This document shows positions 33,117-39,656 of a stretch of DNA of 47,726 bases, piece by piece (position 1 is the first letter of the stretch; every line of letters begins with the position of its first letter). This stretch comes from Acrocarpospora macrocephala (lineage in GTDB: Bacteria > Actinomycetota > Actinomycetes > Streptosporangiales > Streptosporangiaceae), in contig NZ_BLAE01000061.1 of assembly GCF_009687865.1 (NCBI RefSeq), positions 21,436 to 69,161 on the forward strand, given 5' to 3'. The position numbers and the translations under genes were made by a program. The notes below the pieces were generated by a model. The model was not told the origin of the DNA, made no database searches, and saw only the letters and a program-made list of their open reading frames with translations.

Positions 33117-33893
33117 TTGCGATATGACACCCCTAGTCTCATACAGTGGAACGCTCGTGCCTATGACAGCTCGTTCGGCTATGTCTCGGCGCAGGGCGCT
33201 CCGCTGGTGGACCTGCTGGATCCGCAGCCGGGCGAGCGCGTGCTCGACCTGGGCTGCGGCACCGGCGTGCTGACCGCCGAGATCGCTTCGCGCGGCGCCA
33301 GGGTGCTCGGCATCGACGGCTCGCACTCGATGATCGAGACCGCCATCGCCCAGTTCCCCGGCCTGGACTTCACGGTCGGGGACGGGCACGACTTCACCGT
33401 CGCCGAGCCGTACGACGCGGTCTTCTCCAACGCGGCGCTGCACTGGTTGAGCCGCGACCCGGACGCCGTGATCGAGTGTGTCCGGATGGCGCTACAGCCG
33501 GGCGGCCGGTTCGTGGGCGAGCTGGGCGGCGCGGGCAACTGCGCCGCGCTCGTCGCCGCGATGCTCACCGCCTGGCGGGAACACGGCCTGCGCGACCCGC
33601 ACCTGCCGTGGTATTTCCCCAGCCCCGCCGAGTACGCCGTGCGCCTGGAGCGTGCCGGTTTCACGCTGCGCCTAGTGGAGAACTTCGACCGGCCGACCCC
33701 GCTGGACGACTGCCCCAACGGCGCCGCCGACTGGGTGCGCATGTTCGCTCCCTCGCTGCTGGAGGGCGTGCCGGTGGCCACCGTGGAGCCGCTGCTGCGG
33801 CGGGTGAACGAGCTGGCCGCGCCCGCGCTGCGCCGGGAGTCCGGCTGGATGGCCGACTACGTGCGCCTGCGGTTCGCGGCGGTTCGGCAGTAG
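33117..33893 (+). CDS. Class I SAM-dependent methyltransferase
   Basis: This 258-residue small-molecule methyltransferase resembles trans-aconitate 2-methyltransferase and UbiE. Motif I is VLDLGCGTGVLTAEIASRG near residue 43. The strand-2 acid lies in VLGIDGSHSM, motif II-like text in YDAVFSNAALHWLSRDPDAV, and motif III in LQPGGRFVGELGG. TTG 33117 is the only plausible start, because an in-frame stop lies at 33105 and no ATG or GTG fits. The C-terminal region is family-typical. The substrate is unknown. It lies between the orphan binding protein and the helicase cassette and ends 93 bases before it. Confidence 0.88.
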   Translation: MRYDTPSLIQWNARAYDSSFGYVSAQGAPLVDLLDPQPGERVLDLGCGTGVLTAEIASRGARVLGIDGSHSMIETAIAQFPGLDFTVGDGHDFTVAEPYDAVFSNAALHWLSRDPDAVIECVRMALQPGGRFVGELGGAGNCAALVAAMLTAWREHGLRDPHLPWYFPSPAEYAVRLERAGFTLRLVENFDRPTPLDDCPNGAADWVRMFAPSLLEGVPVATVEPLLRRVNELAAPALRRESGWMADYVRLRFAAVRQ

Positions 33894-33937: not shown

Positions 33938-33949
33938 GGGATTTGCCAG
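33938..33949 (+). repeat. Copy 1 of a 12-mer flanking the helicase cassette
   Basis: GGGATTTGCCAG lies just left of the cassette. GGGATCTGCCAG (one change) lies at 39668-39679, just right of it, in the same orientation. Confidence 0.4.
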
Positions 33950-33961
33950 ACTATGGTCTGG
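33946..33961 (+). promoter_or_regulatory. Inverted repeat over the cassette promoter
   Basis: CCAGAC-TATG-GTCTGG is a perfect 6-bp inverted repeat. Its centre contains TATGGT (33952-33957), a good -10 box about 30 bases before ATG 33987. A repressor bound here would block the promoter. The C-terminal protein of the cassette, which has a helix-turn-helix, is a candidate. Confidence 0.5.
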
Positions 33962-33986
33962 TCTTACGTACGTGATGGGGATGGCG

Positions 33987-35720
33987 ATGAACTTCTGCCT
34001 GAGTGACCTTGTGCCACCGCTGCGCTGGAGTGATGCCGCCACCATTCCCACCCCGCCGGAATTACCCGCGGCCTGGTGGCGGAGCCTGCCCATGAGCCGG
34101 GTGCTGGCCGCCGTCGGGGCCGACAACCTCGCCGAGCTGCTGACCGATCTGACGCTGAGCCAGTGGCGGGCCGCGGCGGTCGGCGACATCCTGCCCGCCC
34201 TGCACGTGCTCCACCCCGACGAGGCCGACGACCCGCAGGTGGCGATCGCGCTGGACCGGGCCGGATCCTGGACCGGGCTGCTGGCGCTGACCGGCAGGGA
34301 GCTGGCCGACCAGCCGTTCGTGAAGGTGCGGCCGGTGCTCATCGCCCTGTTCGGCGCGGTGTTCACCCGGCTCGGGCAGACCCAGGGCCCGCGGACCGCG
34401 CTGACGGTGCGGCCCGCCCTGGCGGCCGAACCCGCCGATGTGGCCGTGGTGGTGCGGCCCGCCTCCGAAGACCTGTGCGCGCTGCTGGACGGGGTGTTCG
34501 CGGCGCTGGACGACCAGACCTGGATGGTGGCGCAGAACCGGGTCTTCACCGACACGCCGACGGCCGTGGAGGAGCTGGGGCGGCTGCTGGCCGTGCCGGC
34601 CGGGCTGATCGAGGCGATGGAGAAGGCGCTGCGGGCCCGGCTGGAGGAGTGGCTGGAGTCGGCCGAGTCGGCGCCGTTCCGGGCCCACCTGGAGCGGGTG
34701 GCCGAGCTGCTGGGGGTGGCCGCGCCGAAGACGCGGCTCATCAACGCGGCCGACTGGCACGAGGAGGAGCTGCGCTCGCTGGACGTGCTGGCCTGGCAGT
34801 TCGTGCTGGCCTCGCTGCCGGGCTACCAGGTGTCCGGCGAGTGGCTGGTGGCCGGGGACATGGCCGAGCTGCAGGAGAAGACCCGCAAGCTGATCGTGAA
34901 CTCCGACCGGCCGCCGACGGTGAACCGGGCCCGCGAGCTGGTCTCCAGCCTGGGGATCCGGCCCGAGGTGGCCAAGGAGTGGCTGGAGAACGTGCCCCAG
35001 CTGCGCATCCAGAGCGGCACCAACGGCGCCCCGCCCAAACCCAGGCCCCGGCCGCGCCCCAAGCCCGCTCCCCCGCCGAAACCGGCGATCGACGTCGAAC
35101 CCGAGTCGAAGCCGGAGCCGGAACCCGCGCCCAAGCCGGTGCCGAAGCCCGTCCCCAAGCCGGTGCCGAAGCCGCCGCCGCGGACCGAACCGAAGCCCAA
35201 AGCCGAGCCGGGACTGAAGGACGTGGCGCACACCGTGCGCTGCTTCCGGCAGCCCGACGGGCGGTGGTGGCTGCGGGTGGACGTGACCGCCGACCACCTG
35301 GCGGGTGCGGAGATCCCGCTGCCCAGCGGCTTCGCCTCCTATCTGGGGCTCACCCCCGGCGAGAGCAGGAGCGTGCGGAGCGCGGCCGGCGACGTGGAAC
35401 TGACCTGGGACGGCCGCCCGGCGGTGGGCTCGCTCCAGCGCATCCTGACCGAGGTCGCCGCCAAGGAGGGCGGCCACATCTTCCTGACCCTCTCCGAGGA
35501 GGGCATGCTCCGGGTCAGGCACCTGCCCTCGGCCACCGGCGGTGACGCCACCTCGCGGGCGCTGCGCCTGGTCGGCTACACCGCCCCCGGCGGCACCCCC
35601 GACCAGGCAACCAGGGTGATCGCCACCAGGATCGGCCTGACCGGCCCGGTCGGCACCGTGGAACTCCTGGCCCGACTCCGAGAACGCGGGGACCGCGATC
35701 TGCTGTCCCTGCTCGGGTAG
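33987..35720 (+). CDS. Cassette protein A: paralog of protein B with degenerate helix-turn-helix and Pro/Lys linker
   Basis: This protein of unknown function has about 577 residues. ATG 33987 is chosen over 33972 because MNFCLSDLVPPLRW then aligns with protein B's MNLSLSDIVPSLRW. The N-terminal 345 residues align along their length with protein B. The place of its sigma-4-like recognition helix (TRERIRQIE) reads PAGLIEAME, so DNA contact residues are lost. Residues about 350-410 are a Pro/Lys/Glu linker (PKPVPKPVPKPVPK repeats). This replaces the two winged-helix-like segments of protein B. The last 160 residues share the C-terminal domain (RCFRQPDGRWWLRVDV, LARLRERGDRDLLSLL). The stop is six bases before the helicase gene, so the two are co-transcribed. 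Confidence 0.85.
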   Translation: MNFCLSDLVPPLRWSDAATIPTPPELPAAWWRSLPMSRVLAAVGADNLAELLTDLTLSQWRAAAVGDILPALHVLHPDEADDPQVAIALDRAGSWTGLLALTGRELADQPFVKVRPVLIALFGAVFTRLGQTQGPRTALTVRPALAAEPADVAVVVRPASEDLCALLDGVFAALDDQTWMVAQNRVFTDTPTAVEELGRLLAVPAGLIEAMEKALRARLEEWLESAESAPFRAHLERVAELLGVAAPKTRLINAADWHEEELRSLDVLAWQFVLASLPGYQVSGEWLVAGDMAELQEKTRKLIVNSDRPPTVNRARELVSSLGIRPEVAKEWLENVPQLRIQSGTNGAPPKPRPRPRPKPAPPPKPAIDVEPESKPEPEPAPKPVPKPVPKPVPKPPPRTEPKPKAEPGLKDVAHTVRCFRQPDGRWWLRVDVTADHLAGAEIPLPSGFASYLGLTPGESRSVRSAAGDVELTWDGRPAVGSLQRILTEVAAKEGGHIFLTLSEEGMLRVRHLPSATGGDATSRALRLVGYTAPGGTPDQATRVIATRIGLTGPVGTVELLARLRERGDRDLLSLLG

Positions 35721-35726
35721 CCGCCC

Positions 35727-37781
35727 ATGCCCCGGCTCGCGGTCTCCCTGGAGTTCACCAAGGAACTCGGCGCGCTGGCCCGGCCAGTCCGCCGAGACGC
35801 CGTGGTCGCGGTGCGCCGTTTCCTGCACAACTCCCCCGCCGGGCCCACTCCAGAACGGGTGCGCAACGCCCGCGATCCCCGCGTCTTCACGCTGCGCCTC
35901 AGCGACCGCTACCGGGGCGTGGTGCTCCGCCAGCGCGACGTCTACTGGCTGGTCGCGATCCTGCCCGACGCCGAGGCCTGGACCTACGCGCAGCGCCACC
36001 GGTTCACCGTCAACCCCGCCATCGGCGTGATCGAGGTCTGGGACGCCGAGGCGCTGGAGCGGGTCGAGCCCGCGCTGCGCCGCTCCTCGGCCGGCTCCCC
36101 CCGCCGCCTGTACGGCCACGTCTGCGACAGCGACCTGCTCAGCATCGGCATCGACCCCCAGCTGCTGCCGCTGCTGCGGCTGATGAGCACCGACGCGCAC
36201 CTGGCGGCGGTGGAGCCGCTGCTGCCGGAGAGCCAGTTCGCGCCGCTGAGCGCGTTGGCCCAGGGCGGCTCGCTGGCCGAGGCCTGGCGGGAGTTGGACG
36301 GGTGCCGGTGCGTGCTGGCCGACGTGATCGACACCGAGGACCTGGCCACCGCGCTGCTGCGCAGCCCCGGCAAGGCCGCGTTCGCCGCCGACCGGATCGA
36401 GCTGGACCGGATCCTGACCGTGCCGGACTGGTGCACGTTCCTGTACCCGCCGCAGCACACGTACTCCAACTGGGAGAACTACGAGCAGCCCGCGCTGATC
36501 ACCGGGGGCGCGGGCACCGGGAAGACGATCATCGCGCTGCACCGGGCCGCCCATCTGGCCCGCCACGGCACCGGGCCGGTGCTGCTGGCCACCTTCTCGC
36601 AGGTGCTGGTGAACGAGCTGGCCACCAAGCTGGACATGATCATCGACGACGAGGTGCTGCGCAAGCGCGTCGAGGTGACCAACGTGGACCGGCTGGCCTA
36701 CCGGATCGTGGCCGAGCACGAGGGGCGGCCGCCGAAGGTGGTCGGGGACGTGGCCAAGCTCTGGCAGGAGGCGGCCGGGAGCAGGTTCGGGGCCGCGTTC
36801 CTGCTGCGCGAGTGGGAGCAGGTGATCCTGTCGCAGAACCTGCGCTCGCTGGAGGAGTATCTGGCGGCCGAGCGGCCTGGCCGGGGCACCCAGCTGTCGC
36901 CGGAGATCAAGAGCAATGTGTGGCGGGCGGTCGAGCACGTGGAGGGGCAGTTGCGGGCCTCGGGGCGGCGCACGCTGCTGCAGCTGGTCAGCGAGGCCGC
37001 CGATCTGCTCGGGCAGGCCACCGGGGACATGCTGGGGGACCAGGCGCCGGGGCGTGAGCCGTACAAGCATGTGGTGGTGGACGAGGCGCAGGACCTGCAC
37101 CCGGCGCAGTGGCGGCTACTGCGGGCGGCGGTGCCACCGGGGCCGAACGACCTGTTCGTGGTGGGCGACCCGCACCAGCGCATGTTCGACACCCGGGCGG
37201 CGCTGGCCGGGATGGGCATCCCGGTCCGGCGGTTCCACCTGAAGATCTCGCACCGGCTGCCGCACGAGATCCTCTCCTTCGGCGTACGGCTGCGCGGCGG
37301 CGGCCCGGTGGACGGCCTCGCCGAGGGCGTCTCCGAGATGTACGGCTACCGCTCGCTCCAGCACGGCCCCCGGCCGATGGTGCGCAACTACGTCAGCCCG
37401 GAGGCGGAGATCACCGGGCTGGTCGCGCACGTGACCGACTGGCTGGCCGACGGGGTGCCGCCGAACCAGGTCGCGGTGGCGGCCAGGACCGTGGAACTGG
37501 TCAGGACCGCGCGGGCGGCGCTGCGCGCGGCGGGCATCGAGGTGAAGGTGACGATGCTGCACGGCATGAAGGGTCTGGAGTTTCGCCGGGTGGCCGTGAT
37601 AGGCGTTGCAGACGGGATCGTTCCGGCGCCGGAGCAGCTCACTCCGGCCTCGGAAGATCCCACGGCCCGAGCCCATGACCTGCAACGAGAACGGGGGCTG
37701 CTCTATGTGGCCTGCACGCGGGCGAACGAGCTGCTCTACGTGTCCTACTCCGGCCGGGCGAGTCCCTTCCTGCCCACCTGA
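35727..37781 (+). CDS. SF1 UvrD-like helicase fused to an N-terminal RelE/ParE-like domain
   Basis: This 684-residue protein has a RelE/ParE-like N-terminus (about 1-92; SLEFTKELGALARPVRRDAV, FTLRLSDRYRGVVLRQRDVY). A middle region of about 150 residues follows, then a complete superfamily-1 helicase core. The core has Walker A GGAGTGKT (260), motif II DEAQD (452), motif III VVGDPHQRMFD (478), motif IV SHRLPHEI, motif V LHGMKGLEF (611) and motif VI RERGLLYVACTRAN (654). No nuclease of the RecB type and no separate antitoxin gene are present. The RelE fold normally cleaves ribosome-bound mRNA or binds gyrase. Whether it is active here is unknown. The gene lies between the two paralogous proteins A and B, six bases after A. 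Confidence 0.9.
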   Translation: MPRLAVSLEFTKELGALARPVRRDAVVAVRRFLHNSPAGPTPERVRNARDPRVFTLRLSDRYRGVVLRQRDVYWLVAILPDAEAWTYAQRHRFTVNPAIGVIEVWDAEALERVEPALRRSSAGSPRRLYGHVCDSDLLSIGIDPQLLPLLRLMSTDAHLAAVEPLLPESQFAPLSALAQGGSLAEAWRELDGCRCVLADVIDTEDLATALLRSPGKAAFAADRIELDRILTVPDWCTFLYPPQHTYSNWENYEQPALITGGAGTGKTIIALHRAAHLARHGTGPVLLATFSQVLVNELATKLDMIIDDEVLRKRVEVTNVDRLAYRIVAEHEGRPPKVVGDVAKLWQEAAGSRFGAAFLLREWEQVILSQNLRSLEEYLAAERPGRGTQLSPEIKSNVWRAVEHVEGQLRASGRRTLLQLVSEAADLLGQATGDMLGDQAPGREPYKHVVVDEAQDLHPAQWRLLRAAVPPGPNDLFVVGDPHQRMFDTRAALAGMGIPVRRFHLKISHRLPHEILSFGVRLRGGGPVDGLAEGVSEMYGYRSLQHGPRPMVRNYVSPEAEITGLVAHVTDWLADGVPPNQVAVAARTVELVRTARAALRAAGIEVKVTMLHGMKGLEFRRVAVIGVADGIVPAPEQLTPASEDPTARAHDLQRERGLLYVACTRANELLYVSYSGRASPFLPT

Positions 37782-37799
37782 TCCCCTAATCTGAACTGC

Positions 37800-37810
37800 G
37801 GAGATACTCC
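37800..37810 (+). promoter_or_regulatory. Short palindrome GGAG-ATA-CTCC before protein B
   Basis: An 11-bp inverted repeat lies in the 48-bp gap between the helicase and protein B genes. It may be an operator or a small RNA structure. Evidence is limited to the symmetry. Confidence 0.25.
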
Positions 37811-37829
37811 CCTTGCCGGTTGGACCTGC

Positions 37830-39656
37830 ATGAATCTAAGCCTGAGCGACATCGTGCCCTCCCTGCGCTGGACCGCGCCCAGCCAGGTCGAGCCGATCGC
37901 CAGCGACCCCGGCCTCCCCGACGCGTGGTGGCAGGCGCTTCCGCTGGACCGCGCGTGCGCCGCGGTGGGCACGGAGCGGGTGGCGTCGCGGCTGGCCGAT
38001 CTGACCACAGCGTGCTGGGGTCATCTGGTGCTGGGCGACATCATGCCGTTGCTGAGGTTCACCAATCCGGTGGAGAGCCAGCAGCTGCCGGGGACCAGGG
38101 AGAGTGTGCTCCAGCTTTTCTCCGGCGTGCTGGACAAGCTGCTGGAGACCGAGCCGGGCGACCGGGTCGCGGCCCCGCCCGCGGTGCCGGAGCGGCCGCT
38201 GCCCGAGCTGGTGGACGAGGTCTTCGCCCGGCTCGACGACCGCCAGCGCGCCATCGCCAGGGACCGGCTGTACGCCGAGCAGCGCGCCACCCTGGACGAG
38301 CTGGCCCAGCGTTTCTCCGTCACCCGGGAGCGGATCAGGCAGATCGAGCGGGACCTGCGCGACCACGTGGACGCCTGGCTGTCCAGCCAGGACGCGGCCC
38401 CGCTGAGCGCGCACCTGAGCTGGCTGCGCACCCGGCTCGGCTCGGCCGTGCCGGCCGACGACCTGACCGCCGCCGTGCCGTGGCACCGCACCGAGCTGGC
38501 CACCCTGGGGATCCCGGCCTGGCGGTTCGTGCGCACCCTGCTGACCGGCTACGAGCAGGTGGACGGCTGGCTGATCGCGGGCGGCGCGGACGAGCTGCGG
38601 GAGAAGACCCGAGGCCTGTTCACCGACGGCCCGGTGCCGCTGGCCGAGGCGATCGTGATGGTCTCCCAGCTGGGCGTGCGCGAGGACGTGGCCGAGCGGT
38701 GGCTGGCGGCGGTGCCGCACCTGCGGGTGCTGGAAGGGCACGTGGTGCCGTGGCCGCGCAGCGTGAACGACAAGGCCGAGGCGGTGCTGGCGGTGGCTGG
38801 GATGCCGCTGTCGCCGGAGGAGATCCAGACCAGGATCGGCGAAGATTACAGCCTGGTCGGCATCCGTAACCAGCTGACCGCCGATGAGCGGTTCCTGCGG
38901 CTGGATCGCAACAAGTACGGACTCACCCGGTGGGGCGGCGAGGAATATCTGGGCATCCGCGAGATGATCGCCAGGGAGATCCAACGGGCCGGGGGTGAGG
39001 CGTCGGTGAACACCATCGTGACCAGCCTGACCTCGCGGTATGAGGTGAGCGAGAGCTCGGTGCGCGCGTACGCGGGCGGGCCGGGGTTCGAGCGCACCCA
39101 GCGGGGGTGGATCCGGGTGGCCGGTGCGGAGCAGGGCGAGTACCAGCCGCGCCGGGACGTCTCGATGACGCGGCGCTGCTTCCGCAGCCGGGACGGGCGC
39201 TGGTGGCATCGGGTGGACGTGAACGCCGAGCATCTGCGAGGTTCGGGTTCGCCGCTGCCGACCGGGTTCGCGGCCCATCTGGGCATGGCGCCCGGCGGGC
39301 AGCTGACGGCGTCCACGGCGTCGGGCGAGGTCGTGATCAGCTGGCACAACCAGCCGACCATGGGGTCGATCCGGCCGGTGCTCGCGGAGTACAACGCGGC
39401 GGAGGGCGATCATGTCTTCCTGACCGTGTCGGACGGCGGCGAGTTGCTGACCCGGTTCCTGCCCGCCAGCCCGCCCGGGCTGCCGACGCTCAACCGCGCC
39501 CTGCACCTGATCGGGTACACGGCTCCGGTGGCTTCGGAGGCGGAGGGGTTGCGGCTGATCGGGGCCCGGATCGGGCTGCCCGACGGAGCCGCGCGGGATG
39601 AGGTGCTGGCCCGGCTGCGCGAGCGCGGCGACCGGGACATTCTCACGTTCCTGTAA
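37830..39656 (+). CDS. Cassette protein B: sigma-70 region 4-like DNA-binding protein
   Basis: The function of this 608-residue protein is unknown. Residues about 134-184 form a sigma region 4.2-like helix-turn-helix (LDELAQRFSVTRERIRQIER). About 312-370 is a winged-helix-like segment (LSPEEIQTRIGEDYSLVGIR, YGLTRWG) that resembles HARE-HTH modules known from restriction systems and RNA polymerase delta. About 375-428 is a third HTH-like unit (ASVNTIVTSLTSRYEVSESS). The last 160 residues are shared with protein A (RCFRSRDGRWWHRVDVNAEH, LARLRERGDRDILTFL). No sigma region 2 exists, so it cannot act as a classical sigma factor. DNA recognition or self-regulation of the cassette is inferred. Confidence 0.87.
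   Translation: MNLSLSDIVPSLRWTAPSQVEPIASDPGLPDAWWQALPLDRACAAVGTERVASRLADLTTACWGHLVLGDIMPLLRFTNPVESQQLPGTRESVLQLFSGVLDKLLETEPGDRVAAPPAVPERPLPELVDEVFARLDDRQRAIARDRLYAEQRATLDELAQRFSVTRERIRQIERDLRDHVDAWLSSQDAAPLSAHLSWLRTRLGSAVPADDLTAAVPWHRTELATLGIPAWRFVRTLLTGYEQVDGWLIAGGADELREKTRGLFTDGPVPLAEAIVMVSQLGVREDVAERWLAAVPHLRVLEGHVVPWPRSVNDKAEAVLAVAGMPLSPEEIQTRIGEDYSLVGIRNQLTADERFLRLDRNKYGLTRWGGEEYLGIREMIAREIQRAGGEASVNTIVTSLTSRYEVSESSVRAYAGGPGFERTQRGWIRVAGAEQGEYQPRRDVSMTRRCFRSRDGRWWHRVDVNAEHLRGSGSPLPTGFAAHLGMAPGGQLTASTASGEVVISWHNQPTMGSIRPVLAEYNAAEGDHVFLTVSDGGELLTRFLPASPPGLPTLNRALHLIGYTAPVASEAEGLRLIGARIGLPDGAARDEVLARLRERGDRDILTFL

What the first reader, a model, noticed from the sequence alone, without database searches (positions are those of the whole stretch)
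33987..39656. Undescribed three-gene cassette: two divergent paralogs around a RelE-UvrD helicase
A paralog pair (proteins A and B, about 577 and 608 residues) brackets an SF1 helicase, all on one strand with gaps of 6 and 48 bp. B has sigma region 4-like and winged-helix DNA-binding modules, and both paralogs share a C-terminal domain of about 160 residues of unknown fold. SF1 helicase plus DNA-binding partner plus toxin-like domain is the kind of composition found in anti-phage or anti-plasmid systems (Gabija, for example, pairs a UvrD-like helicase with a nuclease), but this set matches no named system that I know. The cassette lies inside an otherwise conserved chromosomal neighbourhood. 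Defence, plasmid control and repair remain equally untested.
Basis: partly seen in the sequence, partly recalled or inferred. Interest (0 to 1): 0.85.

Follow-up and report, generated by a model that had tools for sequence, protein, structure and literature searches.

The report
Fixed helicase cassette with promoter-reading partners
A three-gene unit carried at one fixed chromosomal spot by one family of soil actinobacteria pairs a helicase related to a known anti-phage protein with two related DNA-binding proteins, one built partly like the part of RNA polymerase that reads promoters, so it is probably a long-domesticated DNA-surveillance module rather than a mobile defence island.

Summary
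In detail: A (577 aa), H (684 aa) and B (608 aa) lie on one strand with gaps of 6 and 48 bp; A and B are paralogs. The interpretation changes in four ways. (1) The shared 'unknown' C-terminal domain models as a B3-type DNA-binding pseudobarrel; B also has a sigma region 4 with an invariant recognition helix, which A has lost. (2) H is a full-length relative of ArmD-type RelE-UvrD helicases of the tested anti-phage system ARMADA type II (31% identity, E 2e-93; PMC12458937). (3) The unit is not a sporadic island: of 63 genomes with a B ortholog, 62 have H beside it, and none of 24 reference defence or repair partners lies in 69 cassette stretches. (4) Two cassette-specific elements upstream of A and B are strongly conserved. 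Outside the family, B-like genes adjoin Pbe, MzaB/MzaC, GmrSD, RecBC or other such genes in 19 of 38 loci, and H-like genes adjoin DISARM/ARMADA-type genes in 15 of 19. Best reading: a domesticated, autoregulated DNA-surveillance module built from defence parts. A housekeeping role stays open; function is untested.

The parts
33940..33963 (+). 24-bp conserved element GATTTGCCAGACTATGGTCTGGTC just upstream of A; candidate operator/promoter core (contains TATGGT, a possible -10, and an inverted repeat CCAGAC-TATG-GTCTGG)
   Evidence: 19-bp core in 75 of 80 loci at <=3 mismatches; one copy in the 12.1 Mb genome at <=3 mismatches, the reversed control pattern also one; at <=1 mismatch in 11 of 11 cassette genomes and 0 of 285 others of a class sample, controls 0; alignment
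33987..35720 (+). protein A (577 aa): N-terminal region as in B, sigma region 4 recognition helix lost, proline-rich linker, B3-like C-terminal domain
35217..35717 (+). A, residues 411-577: domain shared with B at 50% identity, B3-like by homology to the modelled domain of B
35727..37781 (+). protein H (684 aa): ArmD-class RelE-UvrD SF1 helicase
35727..36050 (+). H N-terminal RelE-like domain (about residues 1-108)
   Evidence: name from PMC12458937; not found by Pfam
36420..37778 (+). H helicase core (residues 232-684), motif I lysine K266 at 36522-36524
37790..37826 (+). second conserved element between H and B (CTGAACTGCGG ... TTGCCGGTTGG), likely a promoter/operator of B
   Evidence: exact CTGAACTGCGG in 73 of 81 rows (window and 72 of 80 loci) and only 73 copies in the 1.66 Mb of the 80 loci
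37830..39656 (+). protein B (608 aa): sigma region 4, two winged helices, HARE-HTH-like stretch, B3-like C-terminal domain
38196..38420 (+). B sigma region 4 (residues 123-197); recognition helix VTRERIRQIE at 164-173 invariant in 81 of 81
   Evidence: (1ku7: 1.9 A over 71 residues, 30% identity)
38586..38756 (+). B winged helix 1 (residues 253-309)
38916..39128 (+). B winged helix 2 (residues 363-433; the model is low confidence around 354-374)
39186..39470 (+). B B3-like DNA-binding pseudobarrel (residues 453-547)

Best explanation
A-H-B is a defence-derived DNA-surveillance module that became fixed in the Streptosporangiaceae proper. Shown by sequence or model: H is an ArmD-class RelE-UvrD helicase with its motor motifs largely kept; B carries a sigma region 4 with an unchanged recognition helix, two winged helices and a B3-like domain, and no recognisable catalytic domain; A is a faster-evolving paralog that lost the sigma helix; the unit has two private, strongly conserved cis elements. 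Inferred: B reads promoter-like or modified DNA (the -35 type of contact by sigma region 4, plus B3 and winged-helix contacts) and recruits or licenses H. H then translocates and strips or unwinds that DNA, with the RelE-like domain either cutting mRNA on nearby transcription complexes or acting as a docking part. A pairs with B or H as regulator or decoy. B (or A with B) also binds the two elements to keep expression low until foreign DNA titrates it away.
For: H against an ArmD-like protein of an E. coli plasmid locus with ARMADA-type gene order: 31% over 722 columns, E 2e-93, N-terminal domain included. ArmD's Walker A mutant abolished protection (passages of PMC12458937 read). H-like genes elsewhere adjoin DrmA, DrmB, N6-methylase, McrBC, GmrSD, kinase, sigma-like or ArmB/ArmC-like genes in 15 of 19 loci. 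B-like genes elsewhere adjoin PbeA with PbeC (8), MzaB and/or MzaC (5), GmrSD (2), RecBC (1), ZacB (1) or UvrD-nuclease plus DUF4011/COG1112 (2), together 19 of 38. In 7 of these the B-like stop overlaps the next gene's start by 4 nt (checked in 110). Domains. Cis elements. Fixed trio. One natural deletion of A plus most of H (L056 = G785) keeps B, and there the B-upstream element has decayed.
Against: Near-universal presence, fixed locus and purifying selection on B (dN/dS 0.02-0.30) are unusual for defence genes. None of the 24 reference partners lies in 69 cassette-bearing stretches, and no ArmC-like or PbeA-like protein was found in the own genome (the tool warns that an empty answer without a positive control shows little). 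The other 19 of 38 B-like loci and 4 of 19 H-like loci have none of these partners. Strict motif patterns fail in some H orthologs (motif II DE.QD in 76 of 80, VI VA.TR in 74 of 80). Genome G778 has an A-like protein but neither a B ortholog nor H at the thresholds used. No phage or plasmid experiment exists for this cassette. Complex formation was not modelled. The reference proteins used to score neighbours came in part from the scored loci, so 19 of 38 and 15 of 19 describe these loci and are not unbiased rates.
Confidence: 0.5

Rival explanations
1. Housekeeping role in transcription: a HelD-, Mfd- or UvrD-like factor that clears stalled RNA polymerase or repairs DNA, with B docking at promoters through sigma region 4.
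Confidence: 0.3
2. Primarily a regulatory locus: A and B are transcription regulators of a small regulon and H is a linked effector unrelated to invading DNA.
For: A and B consist of DNA-binding modules without a recognised catalytic domain; two private conserved elements in front of A and B.
Against: The upstream element occurs once in the own genome at up to 3 mismatches, so a regulon defined by that site would be the cassette itself. Conserved coupling to a helicase in this family, and helicase or restriction partners in many loci outside it.
Confidence: 0.12
3. Relic of a larger ARMADA-like system in which H lost its partners and now persists without a defence function.
For: H is ArmD-class, but no ArmB- or ArmC-like gene lies in 69 cassette-bearing stretches and no ArmC-like protein was found in the own genome at E 1e-10. 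Strict helicase motif patterns fail in a few orthologs.
Against: Motif I (GK[ST]) and motif III (GD..Q) are present in 80 of 80 H sequences, motif V KGLEF in 78 and motif II DE.QD in 76; dN/dS of H is 0.05-0.29, so H is under selection.
Confidence: 0.08

Closest known systems
ARMADA type II, ArmD (RelE-UvrD helicase)
   Same: H aligns full length with an ArmD-type protein (31%, E 2e-93), the RelE-like N-terminus included; the same motif I lysine number, K266, by the text of PMC12458937
   Different: No YprA-like ArmC or PglX-like ArmB in 69 cassette-bearing stretches; two DNA-binding paralogs instead; fixed chromosomal locus
Pbe / CxC ABC-ATPase-DndE systems
   Same: B-like proteins lie directly upstream of PbeA (PLD-SF2 helicase) and PbeC on the same strand in 7 loci, 6 of them with a 4-nt overlap
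   Different: The cassette has an SF1 helicase and neither PbeA nor PbeC; PbeB as described in PMC10853773 (passages) is a small protein, not a B-like one
MZA system (MzaA sigma-like protein, MzaB, MzaC)
   Same: B-like proteins sit in front of MzaB- and MzaC-like genes in 3 loci; B and PADLOC's MzaA share a sigma region 4 (17.8 bits)
   Different: B matches MzaA only over sigma region 4; the B-like proteins of L208 and L210 do not match the MzaA model at 1e-5
Gabija (GajB)
   Same: UvrD-like helicase; best PADLOC match of H is GajB, 81 bits
   Different: A and B match no GajA model; genes further out were not scanned for GajA
LlaJI.R1 and plant B3 DNA-binding domains
   Same: The shared C-terminal domain models on B3 domains (VRN1 2.3 A over 90 residues; LlaJI.R1 4.3 A over 106)
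   Different: No motor is fused to it in A or B; low sequence identity in these matches (17% and 11%)
HelD / UvrD1 / PcrA
   Same: SF1 motor fold
   Different: RelE-like N-terminus; equivalog cutoffs not reached

Membership tests
ARMADA type II | ArmD: RelE-like domain fused to a GajB-like UvrD helicase | tested here: met
   full-length alignment to a protein whose locus has the ARMADA II gene order by annotation; definition from passages of PMC12458937; not aligned to the published ArmD itself
ARMADA type II | YprA-like ArmC next to ArmD | tested here: not met
   two ArmC-type references, none in 69 cassette-bearing stretches; none in own genome at 1e-10 (weak because there was no positive control)
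ARMADA type II | PglX-like methylase ArmB in the operon | tested here: not met
   none in 69 cassette-bearing stretches
ARMADA type II | BrxHII-like helicase ArmA | not tested
   no ArmA query was used
Pbe (CxC ATPase-DndE) | PbeA and PbeC in the locus | tested here: not met
   none in 69 cassette-bearing stretches; no PbeA in own genome at 1e-10
MZA | MzaA sigma-like protein | tested here: inconclusive
   B to MzaA 17.8 bits and 37.1 bits against a cutoff of 800, sigma region 4 only
MZA | MzaB and MzaC in the locus | tested here: not met
   none in 69 cassette-bearing stretches
DISARM | DrmA and DrmB in the locus | tested here: not met
   none in 69 cassette-bearing stretches
Gabija | GajA nuclease beside the helicase | tested here: not met
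   the two genes beside H: A has no PADLOC match and B only MzaA, up to E 1
RelE toxin domain | RelE fold and catalytic residues | tested here: inconclusive
   predicted order of strands and helices compatible; no Pfam or PDB-sequence hit; activity not testable
Sigma factor region 4 | -35 recognition helix | tested here: met
   Pfam E 7e-9, 1ku7 1.9 A/71, VTRERIRQIE in 81 of 81 B; that this is the canonical -35 contact sequence is recalled
Full sigma factor | region 2 (core binding, -10) | tested here: not met
   no Sigma70_r2 in B up to E 1
HelD or PcrA/UvrD housekeeping helicase | NCBIfam equivalog score | tested here: not met
   68 against 911 (PcrA), 37.5 against 419 (HelD_BACSU) and others

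The most novel reading that the evidence does not exclude
B-like proteins form a so far unnamed family of RNA-polymerase promoter-recognition mimics (sigma region 4, in some distant members joined to an alpha-CTD, plus winged helices and a B3 domain) that act as interchangeable target-finding subunits for helicase-nuclease defence machines (RelE-UvrD, PbeA/PbeC, MzaB/MzaC, GmrSD, possibly RecBCD). The Streptosporangiaceae have domesticated one such pairing as a core, autoregulated immune trio.
Probability: 0.22. Interest if true: 0.85.

Novelty: new variant of a known kind. Interest (0 to 1): 0.62.

Why it matters
In the one paper found here that describes them, ArmD-class helicases are parts of larger phage-defence operons. 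A compact, family-wide version with its own DNA readers would show how a mobile immune part becomes core equipment, and would give a small system (three genes, two operator candidates) to test what the RelE-UvrD motor does. The B-like family links several defence systems through one shared partner with promoter-reading modules, which raises a testable idea: some defences may find invading DNA at its promoters.

Tried and rejected
Rejected: mobile island (none of 24 reference partners in 69 cassette-bearing stretches, 78 of 80 loci with the same upstream methyltransferase). Rejected: chance pairing of A, H and B (62 of 63). Rejected: C-terminal domain of unknown fold. Rejected: a global regulator site, since the upstream element is single-copy. 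The 1012-aa antisense ORF (34062-37100, -) and the other long antisense ORFs are taken as artefacts of the G+C-rich codon pattern; this was not tested.

A hairpin reading of the upstream element was considered by eye only and is not consistent across genera. The VIA listing for H is filled by helicases and shows no RelE chain; this excludes nothing. In one search the anchor was not called in L205 and L214; these two are left out, so 38 of 39 and 19 of 20 loci were scored. The control took the 68 of 80 loci longer than 21 kb, the window, and two own-genome stretches without the cassette (L088, L089): 0 of 71. Counts 63 and 62 were made by eye from the tables, whose match lists are truncated at the weak end; in G809 and G851 B is split over contig ends, with its N-terminal piece beside H. 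L056 was left out of alignment A3 and of the motif counts.
Full report
Observation. A and B are paralogs (36% over 348 columns, 50% over 167). H is an SF1 UvrD-type helicase and B has a sigma region 4. An alignment of 16 upstream regions supports the ATG at 33987 as A's start.

Where it occurs. The best 80 of 115 loci from a scan of genome contigs with B come from Acrocarpospora, Herbidospora, Microtetraspora, Microbispora, Planobispora, Streptosporangium, Nonomuraea and neighbours. 79 of 80 have A and H upstream of B on the same strand (A is cut by the contig end in L019 and L067), and 78 of 80 have the same methyltransferase gene upstream; the two without it are those two contigs. In 394 genomes of the class, 16 have a B ortholog at E 0, and in all 16 A and H lie beside it (compared by eye). 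In 150 genomes of the GTDB family, 63 have a B ortholog (67% identity or more) and 62 of these have H beside it (compared by eye). The one exception, G785, has the coordinates of L056 (Sphaerimonospora thailandensis): A and about 85% of H are gone and a stub of H remains, but B is intact. A genome of the same genus, G823, has all three. One further genome, G778, has an A-like protein but neither a B ortholog nor H at the thresholds used. Protein distances of the upstream methyltransferase, A, H and B correlate over 78 sets, window included (r 0.75-0.87), as expected for vertical descent. dN/dS over 14 chosen pairs: methyltransferase 0.04-0.18, B 0.02-0.30, H 0.05-0.29, A 0.16-0.55. A is therefore the fast-evolving member; its proline-rich linker may inflate the value.

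What H is. [quoted passage not shown] An E. coli plasmid with annotated genes of this kind in this order (L237; identity with the published genes is inferred from order and annotation) encodes a 704-aa protein that aligns with H over its whole length (31%, E 2e-93). In H the motif I lysine is also residue 266 and is invariant in the 45 rows of A3. Over 80 H sequences, motif I GK[ST] and motif III GD..Q are present in 80, motif V KGLEF in 78, motif II DE.QD in 76 and motif VI VA.TR in 74. H is therefore an ArmD-class protein whose motor is mostly, but not always strictly, conserved. Of 20 loci fetched with H-like genes, mostly the best-scoring ones, 19 could be scored, and 15 have DrmA, DrmB, N6-methylase, McrBC, GmrSD, kinase, sigma-like or ArmB/ArmC-like genes within five genes. 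The family names come from Pfam and PADLOC scans of up to ten proteins each, extended to the other loci with phmmer.

What B-like proteins do elsewhere. Outside the family they are sporadic: by profile at E 1e-20, 56 of 201 genomes of one family (that of G188), 4 of 199 of a second and 1 of 22 of a third, and 17 of 72,556 plasmid records with B as query, one of them a Nonomuraea replicon of chromosome size; phage records, none. Several carry an RNA polymerase alpha-CTD in front of the sigma region 4 (E 8e-7, 4e-6, 1e-3 and 7e-4); no such hit was seen in the B of the window. Of 39 loci, 38 could be scored and 19 have a listed partner within five genes: PbeA with PbeC 8 (one on the opposite strand), MzaB and/or MzaC 5 (three with both), GmrSD 2, RecBC 1, ZacB 1, UvrD-nuclease with DUF4011/COG1112 2. 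None has H. The other 19 have no partner that I could name. The reference proteins were partly taken from these loci, so these are descriptions and not unbiased rates. As a control, the 24 references other than A, B, H and B-like proteins hit nothing in 71 stretches: 68 cassette loci over 21 kb, the window, and two own-genome stretches. The cassette stands alone.

Cis elements. The 24 bp at 33940-33963 are strongly conserved across genera while most of the DNA upstream of them is not. At up to 3 mismatches the 19-bp core is found in 75 of 80 loci. The other five are two short contigs, the deleted L056, and two diverged copies (L051, L068). It occurs once in the own genome at up to 3 mismatches, where the reversed control pattern also occurs once. 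In 296 class genomes at up to 1 mismatch it occurs once in each of the 11 cassette carriers and in none of the other 285, with no control match. A second element lies between H and B: exact CTGAACTGCGG is in 73 of 81 rows and has only 73 copies in the 1.66 Mb of the loci; its genome-wide uniqueness was not tested. Both elements share TTGCC[AG]G. In L056, which lost A and H, the second element has decayed, being the one row of 81 without GGTTGGA. Seven other rows also lack the exact CTGAACTGCGG in the 75 bp examined without having lost A or H, so this single case is suggestive only. The simplest reading is autoregulation by a cassette protein, B being the likeliest because its sigma helix is invariant; this is inferred.

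Mechanism and likelihood. I put 0.5 on a domesticated DNA-surveillance module: B finds promoter-like or otherwise marked DNA, H acts on it, A tunes the pair. I put 0.3 on a housekeeping role at stalled transcription or damaged DNA. The near-universal fixed locus favours the latter; the ancestry of H and B, and the loss in one genome, favour the former. No experiment bears on function.

Novelty. The helicase class, the sigma region 4 and the B3 fold are known. The A-H-B unit, its fixation in a family, its private elements, and the B-like family as a recurrent partner of several defence machines were not found in the searches made here (open-licence library only; papers seen as passages: PMC10853773, PMC12839542, PMC12458937, PMC10924106; all others only as search listings with abstract starts). 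I rate it a new variant of a known kind.

Noticed in passing
L088 4787-6577 (own genome, contig C26): Third paralog of A and B (596 aa) with no H beside it, next to PfkB- and pseudouridine-glycosidase-like genes (names recalled from sequence); similar second-locus hits appear in other cassette genomes.
   Followed up: partly
L134-L139: Genomes of other genera of the same GTDB family carry an A/B-like protein of about 690-775 aa in a similar neighbourhood, with no H beside it.
   Followed up: partly
L216, L217, L218, L219, L223: Composite loci in other actinobacteria join an H-like gene to McrB/McrC-type genes and an N6-methylase, in three of them also to DrmA and a sigma-70-like protein that matches MzaA (1.6e-44 in L216); possibly an undescribed system.
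   Followed up: partly
L200 2-10504 (-): A B-like gene directly upstream of RecC, RecB and RecD genes in one genome of the G188 family.
   Followed up: no
L122, L123, L195-L198: A sigma-region-4 protein (with an alpha-CTD hit in L122 and L123) overlaps PbeA by 4 nt; the passages of PMC10853773 that I read do not describe such a component.
   Followed up: partly
L182, L186: Small Microbacterium plasmid records carry a B-like gene between UvrD-nuclease pieces and DUF4011/COG1112 helicases; genes are broken, perhaps by sequencing errors.
   Followed up: no
L053-L087 (Nonomuraea and neighbours): H is about 600-620 aa in many of these loci instead of about 685; the missing stretch corresponds to about residues 345-410 of H.
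   Followed up: no
window 33117-33893: SAM-dependent methyltransferase gene, co-directional and immediately upstream of A, conserved in 78 of 80 loci; a small-molecule type by its look (recalled), link to the cassette unknown.
   Followed up: no
genome G778 C23:536203-537816: A-like protein without a B ortholog or H at the thresholds used; possibly another loss or an early branch.
   Followed up: no
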